This document shows positions 35,058-38,766 of a stretch of 64,000 bases of DNA, in pieces (positions within the stretch are counted from its first letter, which is position 1; each line of letters begins with the position of its first letter). The position numbers and the translations under genes were made by a program. Location: contig OX465111.1 in assembly GCA_949987565.1 (NCBI GenBank), forward strand, positions 4,182,590-4,246,589, read 5' to 3'. The notes below the pieces were generated by a model. It was not told the origin of the DNA. It was given only the letters and a program-made list of their open reading frames with translations, and searched no databases. The DNA is from Luidia sarsii (taxonomy: Eukaryota; Echinodermata; Asteroidea; Paxillosida; Luidiidae).

Positions 35058-35526
35058 CAGGATCGTGGAAAGGGACCAGTCCAAAGTTCTGGAGCGGCTG
35101 CTCCCGTCTGGACATGGCCGTGTTGAGAATGTTCTCGGCCCCGTCAATGACCTGCAGCAAGTCGTCAAACATGGAGCCCGTGCTGTCGAAGACGAAGGTG
35201 AGCGAGGAGCCGGTGTAGGCCTCGGGCTCGGCCGACGGGACCTCGGACCGCGGCTGGCCCGCGCCGGGATCGGCCCTGCTGCTGGTACCGCCGGTAGGGG
35301 TCGACGGCGGCGGCTGGAAGGCATCGTGGGCCTCCCCAGCCCCGTCGCCAAGCCCCGGCGCCAGGTCGAAGCTGAGACTGGGCGCCTCGTAGCCCGGGAT
35401 CTGTCCTCGGACGGCAGCCGGACACACGATCAAGACCACCGCGGAGATCCAGAAGAAGAGAAGGCGTGGTAAGGGGAGCGCTCCGCCCGTATAGACCGGC
35501 AGTGGAAGGGACCGACACGGCGACAT
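35058..35526 (-). CDS. HMCN1: hemicentin first exon A: signal peptide, Pro/Gly-rich spacer, start of VWA domain
   Basis: It starts at the ATG at 35526-35524; an in-frame TGA lies 15 bases upstream. The protein begins with a basic/proline stretch and a hydrophobic signal core (LLFFWISAVVLIVCPAAVRG). About 75 residues rich in Pro, Gly and Ala follow, then the first VWA strand and MIDAS loop, LTFVFDSTGSMFDDLLQVID, and NFGLVPFHDP. The DxTGS metal-binding motif is intact. The donor GTAAGA follows base 35058, with one base of the last codon left (phase 1), fitting exon 2, which supplies DIGPASITTDP. The region is markedly GC- and CpG-rich compared with its surroundings, as expected for a promoter-proximal exon. 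Hemicentin is secreted and works in basement membrane linkage; the VWA domain is its N-terminal cap. Confidence 0.93.
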
Positions 35527-37020
35527 CGTTTTGTATTCTCAGTCTTCCCCCAACGAGGTCCAGCGGAGAGAGACAGACCACCCGATCCTCTCTCCCAATT
35601 CACGGATTTCAAACAAACAACAACCAAAGATTACATAAATAAAATCCTTCAAAATCCTGAGGTTTGAAGACTGCAAAGAACACCAAGGAATCGACTCCAG
35701 ATGCAGCCGCTGTAGCGAACTTGCTTTGGAGAAATTACTTCATCCCTCAAAAAGTGTTGGGTCGGCGACAACTTCACAGGATTTCGTGGTCGGAGATCAA
35801 CACTCCAACAGCACCATCCCGGATAGGACTCCGTTCTGAATTGAACACCGATCAAATAAATTACCAGCAGGCCGCGGCTAAAGAATCTCTAGATTAGTTG
35901 CTGCACGTACAGAGTAGAATCCTGAAGGGAGGAGTGATGCTCGTCCAGGTGGCTCTTTGACTTATCCGGGGAGGAGGGGAGGTACCTCCTTCAGCCACGC
36001 TTGCCTGCCAACAACTGACCAGCTCCTTGTCAAGCTCAAATTATATAAGGGGGGGGGGGGCGCCCCCTAAGGGAGCAATCGGAATTAAATAGGTTACCGA
36101 CCACCACCGACTGTTCAGCGGTCGACCCCCGCGCCGAAGTGTCCCACTTCCGGTTATCCAAACAGTTCTGCCTGGCTGATTTCCTTTATTCGATTCGAAA
36201 GGGGGGAACTTAGCAAACCAAACGCCACGACTCCACGCCAAAAAGAGTGATGGGGTAAGCAATCCCCCTGTCGTTTTTAGCTCTCTTCGTAAAGGCCTCT
36301 GGTGTTACACAGGGTAGTCAGTGATTAGCAGAAAAAAGGCTTTAGCGGGGGAGAACTTCAAAGGGTGAACAATGATTGTCTCCTGTTCACTGAAAGCGTT
36401 CGTGGGGAGTCTAACCGCAAAGGAGTTCCGCTGAGCACGTACCACGCACTGCGACGTCACATCCCCCATACTGCTCTCACGCGTCTCTGCATGGAGGGGC
36501 TATGCGTTACAGGTGCACGTTGCGATTTTGCAGGAGTCGACTTTTTGACTCTTGGAGAGCGCCCTCACAGTTTGCCGAACATGGACCACTTACACCGAAC
36601 AGTGACTTATAATGTCACACCACACGGAAAGCAACATTGGCGCGGGTCCAAATAAATCAGAGAGGAAGGCCGCGATTATTGTGCCAGACGAGGCCAATTT
36701 GTTTCTATCTCTCAAAGTTATTCGTACTGTGAAATTTGTTCGTACACACATCCATGGTTTAGGGTATGGTCTTTTTTATCCATTGGCCTACTAGTTACTG
36801 AGCTGATTTTTCAACGATTTCCCCATCCTTTCATCCTATAGCCTGCAATAGAAGTACGCTGGGCTAAGTCACTTAACTATCCCCAGACCCCCAAAAACCA
36901 TTTGAAATATTGGGCGCCCATTCCTCCACAAAAGAAAAATAATACTAATATTATTTTGATGACGGAATCATTGCAATCAAACTTCTGATTTAGAGATGTC
37001 TTTCATGGGCTCGAGAGTAT
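35527..37020. other. region upstream of first exon A, presumed 5' UTR and promoter
   Basis: No reading frame is supported. The bases directly above 35526 should hold the 5' UTR and promoter of the exon A transcript. I see no convincing TATA box at a useful distance; a TTATATAA string near 36038 is about 500 bases from the start codon. A poly-G run occurs at 36049-36060. If exon B is used, the whole stretch is intronic. Confidence 0.4.
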
Positions 37021-37139
37021 GGCCGTGTCCGAAACGGGCCTCCAGAGCTACGGCTACGGCTATTGTCTTCACATATCCGTGTGTTTCCAATGGAGCGAAG
37101 ATCTAGCCGTAGCTCTAGACAACAGATTCAGACACGGCC
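37021..37139. mobile_element. 119-base MITE with GGCCGTGTC ends
   Basis: The left end GGCCGTGTCC and the complement of the right end, GGCCGTGTCTG, are inverted. The flanks are TAT on the left and TAA on the right, possibly a mutated 3-base TWA duplication. Inner arms AGCTACGGCT and AGCCGTAGCT also pair, so the whole element folds as a hairpin. Confidence 0.65.
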
Positions 37140-37679
37140 TAAGTGATAGCAACACGACTGGATTCGAAAAGAGAACGAAAGGGGGTACTGTCGCTGGGTG
37201 AGCCTATCGGTCACTGTCAACCTCTAATAATTTTTTTAACGAACTATATCGCCAGAAAGCGATTCCTACTGCTCAGAGGTAATAGATACCAGGCTCGTTA
37301 TGACCATGTTCTGACACCCCCTCTCGAAGAGATAAGATGCCGTAGTCTGTGGGTCAGCTCAGGTATCAAGGCTAATGGTTCTAGACTTGAAATTTTACTG
37401 GCTCCTCATCTGCATCTGATATATTCTTATCATAACAGGCCATTCAAGGCAGGTGGTTGTGTGCGGGGATATCTTGAGTGGAATTCGAAGCCTCGGTTCA
37501 CAATGTTTGCGGAAACACTGACTTATTCATGTCGAGAGTGTGTGGGGGTAGGAGACGAGATTGTGACTCAACGTTTCGAGCTGTGTGAGCTCTGCCCGTC
37601 GATTGGTGTTTGATGGAGTGTCACGTGCGTTTCGCCATCCGTGCATTGGAGGAATGCCTGTGTTGTTTTCATTCTTTGA

Positions 37680-37947
37680 TGGTTTATTCATTGGTCGGCT
37701 GGTTGGTTAGTTGGTTAGGTGGTTGGTTGGCTGGCTGTTTGGTTTGTTGGTTGGCTAGTTGGTTGTGGTTGGTTTGTTGGTTGATGATTGGTTGGTTGGT
37801 TAATTAGTTTGTTTGTGGGTAGGTTGGGTGGGTGGTTGGTGGGTTGGTTGGTTGATGGTTTGTTGATGGTCATGGTTGGTTGATTGATTTATTGGTCGGT
37901 CGGTCGGTTGGTCGGTTGGTTGGGTGGTTGGTCGGTTGGTTGGGTGG

Positions 37948-37979
<32 letters not shown>

Positions 37980-38036
37980 TCAGTCTGGTCGGTTGGTCGG
38001 TTGGTTGGGTGGTTGGATGGTTGGGTGGTTGGTCGG

Positions 38037-38068
<32 letters not shown>

Positions 38069-38224
38069 TCGGTCGGTCGGTTGGTCGGTTGGTTGGGTGG
38101 TTGGATGGTTGGGTGGTTGGTCGGTTGGTTGGGTGGTTGGATGGTTGGGTGGTTGGTCGGTTGGTTGGGTGGTTGGATGGTTGGGTGGTTGGTCGGGTGG
38201 TTGGATGGTTGGGTGGTTGGTCGG

Positions 38225-38256
<32 letters not shown>

Positions 38257-38393
38257 TCGGTCGGTCGGTTGGTCGGTTGGTTGGATGGTTGGGTGGTTGG
38301 TCGGTTGGTTGGGTGGTTGGTTGGGTGGTTGGTTGGTTGGTCGGTCGGTTGGTTGGGTTGTTGGTTGGGTGGGTGGTTGGTTTGTTCGTATGC
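37680..38393. repeat. GGTT/GGGTGG minisatellite beside first exon B
   Basis: More than 700 bases are composed of GGTTGGTTGGGTGGTTGGAT-like units with higher-order duplication, G-rich on the plus strand. It begins about 80 bases inside the intron that follows exon 1B. All frames are open and give long artefact frames of PTNQ or WLVG repeats on either strand. Confidence 0.95.
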
Positions 38394-38471
38394 AAATAAG
38401 CGTAAACATTACCCACGCCCCTTCTCTGCGTTCACCAACCCGGGCTACGCCCCTGTCGTGACTGAGCTTAC

Positions 38472-38766
38472 CTGGATCAAAGAAGGGCACCAGGCCGAAG
38501 TTGCGGATGGTCTGTCGCCTCGTCTTCACCATCGTCCGGGCGATCTCAGCCGCACCCGCCAGCACTTGCTCCCAGTCGTCGTACATGGAGTCCGAGATGT
38601 CCAGCACCACGGTCAGACTGGCCGAGGCCTGGGAGGCCGGGAGTACGTCACCGGGCCCCGCTCGCTGCGCTCTCGCCGTGGCCGCTCCGTCATCTCGACC
38701 CGCCGTGGTCGGTAGATGGTAGCAGGCAGCCAGCAAGACCAACAAGCACACGACACACTCGTGCAT
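38472..38766 (-). CDS. hemicentin-type alternative first exon B: signal peptide plus start of a second VWA domain
   Basis: The ATG at 38766 opens a clear signal peptide (CVVCLLVLLAACYHLPTTAG). A short spacer follows, then ASLTVVLDISDSMYDDWEQV and NFGLVPFFDP. This aligns with exon 1A residue for residue from the first VWA strand to the donor, but with a DxSDS metal motif in place of DxTGS and a spacer shorter by about 55 residues. The donor GTAAGC follows 38472 in phase 1, identical to exon 1A. No second GGGDCPE exon is present between here and exon 1A. It therefore most likely splices to the shared exon 2 at 9390, making an alternative first exon; it could instead be a stranded remnant of a tandem duplicate. 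The open frame that continues below 38472 is intron sequence made of the minisatellite. Confidence 0.85.

What the first reader, a model, noticed from the sequence alone, without database searches (positions are those of the whole stretch)
35058..38766. Two alternative hemicentin first exons carrying different VWA metal-binding loops
Exons 35058-35526 and 38472-38766 each encode their own signal peptide and the first strand and MIDAS loop of a hemicentin VWA domain. Both stop at the same codon position (…VPFxDP plus one base, phase 1) and fit the single GGGDCPE exon at 9161-9390. The loops differ (FDSTGSM against LDISDSM), and so do the spacer lengths. No private second exon for the distal copy is visible. 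One gene could thus make two hemicentins from two promoters, with half of the ligand-binding VWA site exchanged. I know of no description of this for hemicentin, but have not searched.
Basis: partly seen in the sequence, partly recalled or inferred. Interest (0 to 1): 0.8.

Follow-up and report, generated by a model that had tools for sequence, protein, structure and literature searches.

The report
Starfish hemicentin with two start exons
A starfish gene for a giant tissue-glue protein (hemicentin) carries two old, conserved, interchangeable first exons, so it can probably make two forms that differ in part of the metal-binding site with which the protein is thought to grip its partners.

Summary
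Exon A (35058-35526, -) and exon B (38472-38766, -) each encode a start codon, a hydrophobic leader and the first strand, metal-site loop and first helix of a hemicentin VWA domain. Both end in phase 1 on GTAAG donors and fit the window's only second exon (9161-9390). By its gene-body tree the window is from a starfish. The predicted junction already exists as a gene model: Acanthaster planci hemicentin isoform X2 has a B-type exon joined to the same second exon, and Asterias amurensis X2 is also B-type; Patiria miniata X2 is A-type. Patiria and Acanthaster agree at 136 of 139 residues after the junction but 29 of 49 before it. B copies group across species, so the duplication predates the split of Asterias from the others. 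The other 117 of the 120 listed homologues are A-type. CpG depletion begins abruptly at exon A, so A looks like the germline start and B a restricted one. No RNA was seen, no other species was seen with both exons, and B evolves faster than A. I found no paper describing it. New variant of a known kind: alternative first exons.

The parts
35058..35526 (-). Coding exon 1A: leader, 107-residue stretch before the VWA, VWA strand 1, loop DSTGS, helix 1, strand 2; ends VPFHDP plus one base
   Evidence: 47 of 49 VWA residues identical to Patiria miniata isoform X2
38472..38766 (-). Coding exon 1B: leader, 49-residue stretch before the VWA, VWA strand 1, loop DISDS, helix 1 (DDW), strand 2; ends VPFFDP plus one base
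   Evidence: 36 of 49 VWA residues identical to Acanthaster planci isoform X2
9161..9390 (-). Shared exon 2: middle of the VWA domain (GGGDCPE and FTDAR loops)
   Evidence: VWA_4 85.3 bits; 69 of 76 identical to A. planci; only copy in the window
6014..6139 (-). Exon 3 (approximate ends): VWA, VVFVMTGDCG...
   Evidence: tblastn with P0004, P0005 and P0006, 93% over 42 residues each
5410..5586 (-). Exon 4 (approximate ends): end of the VWA region and start of the hemicentin galactose-binding-like domain
   Evidence: Pfam GBD_Hemicentin 36.4 bits on the enclosing frame 5404-5649
3770..4000 (-). Exon 5 (approximate ends): rest of the galactose-binding-like domain
   Evidence: Pfam GBD_Hemicentin 29.6 bits on the enclosing frame 3641-4285
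2193..2459 (-). Exon 6 (approximate ends); the gene is expected to continue past the left edge of the window
   Evidence: tblastn, 75-76% to A. planci and P. miniata
35058..40000 (.). CpG-rich stretch holding both first exons; CpG depletion of the gene body begins abruptly at the 3' edge of exon A
   Evidence: CpG observed/expected 0.99 in exon A, 0.97 in exon B, 0.88 at 36501-37690, against 0.42 at 34501-35057 and 0.38 at 1-33000

Best explanation
This is a starfish hemicentin gene with two alternative coding first exons. SHOWN: two first exons and one second exon in the window, with matching splice phase and donors; B-type exons joined to exon 2 in gene models of two other starfish, A-type in a third; B copies of different species group together in the tree. 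INFERRED: a transcript from the distal promoter splices exon B to exon 2 and skips exon A, which as a first exon has no known acceptor; a transcript from the proximal promoter splices exon A to exon 2. The two proteins share everything from the middle of the VWA domain onward but carry different first metal-site loops and first helices. A is the ancestral, germline-active form (A-type in every non-starfish homologue listed; CpG depletion starts at A). B is a derived, starfish-lineage form used in a narrower set of cells, and by analogy with other VWA domains it changes metal or ligand preference. That last step is the least certain.
For: B-to-exon-2 junction in A. planci X2: LDISDSMYDDWEQVL...NFGLVPFFDP|DIGPATITTDPDKF. 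B-type also in Asterias amurensis X2, A-type in P. miniata X2. Patiria and Acanthaster agree at 136 of 139 residues after the junction and 29 of 49 before it; orthologous genes whose models happen to start with paralogous exons explain this best. Exon-1 tree of 24 rows: {Asterias X2, Acanthaster X2, window B} 99/93; the five starfish rows are split from the other 19 at 99/99. Window A and B as nearest kin: rejected, p-AU 0.0025, so this is not a recent local duplication. The gene-body tree puts the window with the three starfish, 100/99. Position 10 is D and position 16 W in the 3 B rows, G and L in the 21 A rows; over all 120 listed homologues D/DW in 2, G/DL in 118. A and B of the window differ at 16 of 49 second and 28 of 49 third codon positions (Fisher p 0.025). 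Both VWA versions give the same predicted fold with like mean confidence (pLDDT 75.8 and 75.1); the 11 best Foldseek hits of the B model are integrin entries.
Against: No RNA data. In no other species did I see both forms; the protein set is clustered at 90% identity, which can hide sister isoforms, and that X2 implies an X1 of the same gene is a naming convention I recall. Exon B is less constrained: 36 of 49 (to Acanthaster) against 47 of 49 for A (to Patiria), while the gene body is equally distant from both (278 and 281 of 339). Asterias X2 is closer by plain identity to window A (61.7% of 60; 32 of 49) than to window B (54.7% of 53; 29 of 49); its place rests on a 49-column tree with long branches, and without the two signature columns the supporting fork falls to 84/82. 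Searching with window B gave 1 protein at E <= 1 among 338 candidates of 1870-5950 aa, not the Asterias one, and none among 734 of 770-2450 aa. The stretch between A and B shows no CpG depletion, so B is not a main germline start and may be rarely used. Both exons lie in CpG-rich DNA, but so does nearly everything from A to the right edge, so that is no sign of a promoter at B.
Confidence: 0.87

Rival explanations
1. Exon replacement: in Acanthaster and Asterias the B exon took over as the only first exon, in Patiria A remained, and the window's species keeps both but uses mainly one.
For: One type seen per other species. CpG depletion starts at A, not B. B evolves faster than A.
Against: All three starfish records are named 'isoform X2', which by the naming convention (recalled) means more than one model per gene. 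B is still intact here, with open frame, donor and 36 of 49 residues kept, and A is almost unchanged against Patiria, 47 of 49, so both appear to have been under selection.
Confidence: 0.07
2. Exon B is a relic of a partial duplication of the gene's 5' end, transcribed rarely or not at all.
For: No private downstream exons in the window; longest end branch in the exon-1 tree, 0.65; no CpG sign of germline transcription from B.
Against: A. planci and A. amurensis models use a B-type exon in frame with exon 2. By the tree the duplication is older than the split of Asterias from the others, and a relic of that age would hardly keep 73% of the VWA residues, the phase and the donor.
Confidence: 0.04
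3. Exon B starts another gene (a separate VWA protein) whose further exons lie outside the window or were missed.
For: The search of the window's own genome did not complete, so other copies elsewhere are not excluded.
Against: B lies 3 kb upstream of A on the same strand and its donor fits exon 2; its Acanthaster counterpart is joined to the hemicentin exon 2. A review reports one hemicentin gene in echinoderms (PMC10381214, section read).
Confidence: 0.02

Closest known systems
Hemicentin (fibulin-6/8, HIM-4)
   Same: N-terminal VWA_4 and hemicentin galactose-binding-like domain. A. planci orthologue is a 4662-aa protein whose precomputed Pfam list holds many further domains. More than one transcript per hemicentin gene is on record in general (table in PMC3707829, passage; mouse isoforms are discussed in PMC8429575, passage).
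   Different: Two coding first exons. The B loop is D-x-S/T-D-S followed by DDW, unlike the DxTGS-type loop with G and DDL of 118 of 120 listed homologues. No paper found describes alternative first exons.
UGT1A locus and clustered protocadherins (recalled, not looked up)
   Same: Several first exons, each with its own promoter, joined to shared downstream exons, so that the binding part varies and the rest is constant
   Different: Only two first exons here, and the junction cuts a single compact domain between parts of its metal site
Alternatively spliced integrins, e.g. alpha7 X1/X2 and Drosophila beta-PS exon 4 (recalled, not looked up)
   Same: Exchange of a short coding segment near the ligand site of an adhesion protein. 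The B-type VWA passes Pfam Integrin_beta (33.5 bits, cutoff 24.8; best stretch in the exon-2 part) and the 11 best Foldseek hits of its model are integrin entries.
   Different: Those are internal mutually exclusive exons; this is a choice of first exon that also swaps the leader
alpha2delta / CACHD1 VWA proteins
   Same: Natural variants of the MIDAS loop among related VWA proteins; the alpha2delta MIDAS matters for binding its channel partner and CACHD1 has a variant DxGxS (PMC6527056, passages)
   Different: Separate genes, not isoforms of one gene

Membership tests
Hemicentin | N-terminal VWA_4 domain | tested here: met
   Exon A 43.1, exon B 28.4, exon 2 85.3 bits; cutoff 27
Hemicentin | Hemicentin galactose-binding-like domain next to the VWA | tested here: met
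   PF23560 at 36.4 and 29.6 bits on the frames of exons 4 and 5; cutoff 27
Hemicentin | Long Ig array, thrombospondin, G2F, EGF and fibulin C-terminal module | not testable with these tools
   Would lie beyond the left edge of the window; the list of domains is as given for echinoderm hemicentins in PMC10381214
Alternative first exons of one gene | Two exons, each with start codon and leader, and the same splice phase | tested here: met
   hydrophobic cores of 10 residues, mean Kyte-Doolittle 3.46 (B) and 2.96 (A). No signal-peptide predictor was run.
Alternative first exons of one gene | A single shared downstream exon | tested here: met
   One exon-2 copy among 2114 segments of the window; rest of the genome not searched
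Alternative first exons of one gene | Transcripts joining each first exon to the shared exon | tested here: inconclusive
   Gene models in three other starfish show B-exon 2 (two) and A-exon 2 (one); no reads seen, none for this species
Alternative first exons of one gene | A separate promoter for each | tested here: inconclusive
   Only A coincides with the start of CpG depletion; B lies in CpG-rich DNA, as does nearly everything from exon A to the right edge
VWA domain with MIDAS metal site | DxSxS in loop 1 (motif as given in PMC4237329 and PMC6527056, passages) | tested here: met
   B: DISDS, exact. A: DSTGS, Thr in place of the first Ser, as in the other A-type rows of the 24-row set
VWA domain with MIDAS metal site | Further ligands Thr and Asp in later loops | tested here: inconclusive
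   Exon 2 carries conserved DCPE and FTDAR, but no residue-level structural alignment was available to assign them
VWA domain with MIDAS metal site | VWA (Rossmann-like) fold | tested here: met
VWA domain with MIDAS metal site | Bound metal and ligand | not testable with these tools
   Needs protein biochemistry

The most novel reading that the evidence does not exclude
A starfish-lineage switch of hemicentin adhesion by choice of first exon. Exon 1 was duplicated before the split of Asterias from the other starfish, and the B copy evolved a different metal-site loop (D-x-S/T-D-S) and helix 1 (DDW). Cells that use the B promoter thus make a hemicentin with another metal or partner preference, possibly for a tissue peculiar to starfish such as mutable connective tissue or tube feet.
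Probability: 0.3. Interest if true: 0.75.

Novelty: new variant of a known kind. Interest (0 to 1): 0.55.

Why it matters
Hemicentin's VWA is regarded as its partner-binding domain (PMC11841684, passage), and the role of hemicentin in echinoderms is stated to be unknown (PMC10381214). A natural, conserved pair that differs in the leader, the first metal-site loop and the first helix but shares the rest is a ready-made swap experiment: it lets one ask directly what the loop selects, which tissue needs which form, and whether the B form serves starfish connective tissue. It also shows a compact metal-site domain split between a variable and a constant exon.

Tried and rejected
Recent local duplication: rejected (p-AU 0.0025 for window A and B as a pair; blastn of 33000-37500 against 38400-43000, exons included, gave one 28-base match, E 0.56). 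Asterias X2 as an A-type that converged: disfavoured only (p-AU 0.035, a group named after seeing the tree). Spacer length as a type marker: rejected. Further first exons in the window: none found. PDB by sequence: exon A and exon B alone gave only chance hits; the 4-row VWA profile gave three designed TIM barrels matched outside exon 1, taken as chance; the 11-row profile gave none. The PDB relatives come from fold comparison only, and in the VIA-align second look TFIIH and Sec23/24 chains rank as high as integrins, so fold rank is no evidence of function. The bacterial-type promoter scan of 38467-39366 says nothing here. The Rfam scan was empty.

Papers: 10 searches. I saw their listings and read passages of PMC4482254, PMC3707829, PMC8429575, PMC8085682, PMC11841684, PMC2855323, PMC6527056 and PMC4237329, and passages plus one section of PMC10381214. 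What I read describes no alternative hemicentin first exons; in PMC4482254 the alternative first exons are of nrg2a. Hemicentin isoforms as such are mentioned. The other listed papers were not opened.
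Full report
WHAT IS THERE. The minus strand carries the 5' part of a hemicentin gene. Exon A (35058-35526), exon B (38472-38766) and exon 2 (9161-9390) were confirmed in the sequence. Each meets Pfam VWA_4 on its own. Exons 3-6 were placed by tblastn with starfish hemicentins, and the hemicentin galactose-binding-like domain is recognised in two of them; the rest of the gene is expected beyond the left edge. 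An HMM of first exons built without the window's rows finds A and B in 2114 segments and nothing else below E 0.3; an exon-2 HMM finds 9155-9421 and nothing else below 0.2. Both donors are G|GTAAG in phase 1, so either first exon joins exon 2 in frame.

WHOSE GENE. On exons 2-6 the window agrees with Patiria miniata at 281 of 339 residues, Acanthaster planci 278 of 339, Asterias amurensis 252 of 339 and the sea urchin S. purpuratus 190 of 337. A 9-row tree joins the four starfish rows at 100/99. The window is therefore from a starfish, apparently nearer to Patiria and Acanthaster than to Asterias, though that inner fork is weak (82/87).

THE PREDICTED JUNCTION EXISTS ELSEWHERE. Searching exon B among proteins of 1870-5950 aa gave a single hit at E <= 1 of 338 candidates: A. 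planci hemicentin-1-like isoform X2 (E 1.2e-12). It reads ...LDISDSMYDDWEQVLRGAKEILTTVMANRDQPIYNFGLVPFFDP and then DIGPATITTDPDKF..., that is B followed by exon 2. A second search with the A. planci VWA gave 738 proteins at E <= 1e-10 among 1181 candidates, of which the best 120 are listed. Of those 120, 118 have G in the loop and DDL after it, and 2 have D and DDW: A. planci X2 and A. amurensis X2. P. miniata X2 is among the 118, with an A-type exon 47 of 49 identical to window A. A third search, among proteins of 770-2450 aa, gave no hit from 734 candidates. Entries stand for clusters at 90% identity, so a sister isoform of the same gene can be hidden inside a listed cluster (members: 4 for A. 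planci, 7 for A. amurensis, 2 for P. miniata).

WHY THIS IS ALTERNATION AND NOT FAST EVOLUTION. P. miniata X2 and A. planci X2 agree at 136 of 139 residues just after the junction and at 3787 of 4479 over the whole shared body, but at only 29 of 49 before the junction. The contrast sits at the exon-1 boundary. In the exon-1 tree of 24 rows the B rows of three starfish form one side of a branch (99/93) and the five starfish rows are split from the rest at 99/99; window A and window B are rejected as nearest kin (p-AU 0.0025). The simplest history is one duplication of exon 1 in the starfish lineage before Asterias split from the others, with both copies kept at least in the window's species. 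Against it: Asterias X2 is closer to window A than to window B by plain identity, and dropping the two signature columns lowers the support that keeps it off the A side to 84/82.

SELECTION. Between A and B of this window, second codon positions differ at 16 and third at 28 of 49 codons (Fisher p 0.025), which suggests constraint on the protein since the duplication. B is under weaker constraint than A: 36 of 49 (B, against Acanthaster) and 47 of 49 (A, against Patiria), although the window's gene body is equally far from both. 73% for B is close to exons 4 and 6 of the same gene (75-78% against Acanthaster and Patiria), so it does not look like neutral decay. No DNA of relatives was available, so dN/dS of B across species could not be computed.

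PROMOTERS. CpG observed/expected is 0.38 over 1-33000 and 0.42 at 34501-35057, then 0.99 in exon A, 0.88 at 36501-37690, 0.97 in exon B and 0.95 over 40746-64000, with large repeats masked; TpG/CpA is raised in most of the depleted part. In animals with gene-body methylation (recalled) this is the mark left by germline methylation of a transcribed unit. The edge at exon A suggests that the germline transcript starts at A. The A-to-B stretch is not depleted, so B is not a main germline start. It may be a tissue-specific start; nothing here shows that B is used in this species.

WHAT THE SWAP WOULD DO. In the predicted structures exon 1 supplies strand 1 (2-7), the metal-site loop (7-11), helix 1 (10-30 in B, 10-29 in A) and strand 2 (41-47, 41-46); exon 2 supplies the DCPE and TDAR loops. 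Both versions fold alike (mean pLDDT 75.8 and 75.1), but confidence in helix 1 is only moderate (blocks of 64-69). The 11 best Foldseek hits of the B model are integrin entries, and both versions pass Pfam Integrin_beta (33.5 bits for Acanthaster B, 25.7 for Patiria A, cutoff 24.8), with the best stretch in the exon-2 part. From memory, integrin beta chains have DxSxSxxDD and DxPE with the same spacing (MIDAS and neighbouring metal sites). If that reading is right, exon choice exchanges the first MIDAS loop and the surroundings of the acidic pair, while exon 2 keeps the rest. The B rows keep the DD pair and have an acidic residue inside the loop (position 10) and a Trp at position 16. I infer a changed metal or ligand preference; nothing here measures it.

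KNOWN OR NEW. A review finds one hemicentin gene in echinoderms and calls its function there unknown (PMC10381214). Ten paper searches turned up no description of alternative hemicentin first exons (most listed papers not opened). The B form is thus present in public gene models but, as far as I could find, undescribed. Alternative first exons are a known kind of arrangement; splitting a compact metal-site domain this way, with the B type found in three starfish, is a new variant.

LIMITS. No reads, no second species seen with both exons, own-genome search unanswered eight times, and protein clusters that can hide sister isoforms.

Noticed in passing
window 37870-38471 (-): The frame of exon B stays open about 200 codons past its donor, through a (TTGG/CCAA)n array at 37691-38386 (174.5 copies), so a retained intron would add a Thr/Pro/Asn/Gln-rich tail.
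   Followed up: no
window 34500-36000: CpG content changes in one step at the 3' edge of exon A, from about 0.3-0.4 to about 0.9 observed/expected, and stays high to the right, apart from the hexamer-repeat kilobase at 40001-41000 (0.35) and the last kilobase (0.65).
   Followed up: yes
window 53306-54301 and 57897-59402 (-): Two long GC-rich open frames (331 and 501 aa), rich in Ser, Arg and Pro, without any Pfam match up to E 0.1; perhaps exons of the upstream neighbour gene.
   Followed up: partly
window 40234-40745: Hexamer array GAGCCT, 85.5 copies, open in several frames, upstream of exon B.
   Followed up: no
window 28438-28682 and 54577-55094: Minisatellites with 21-base and 12-base units.
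   Followed up: no
window 11001-12000 and 14001-15000: Two CpG-rich kilobases (0.82 and 0.89) inside the otherwise CpG-poor first intron; that they are young inserted elements is a guess.
   Followed up: no
window about 9750-9830: Stretch that reads like a tRNA-derived short repeat, in the first intron near exon 2 (seen by eye).
   Followed up: no
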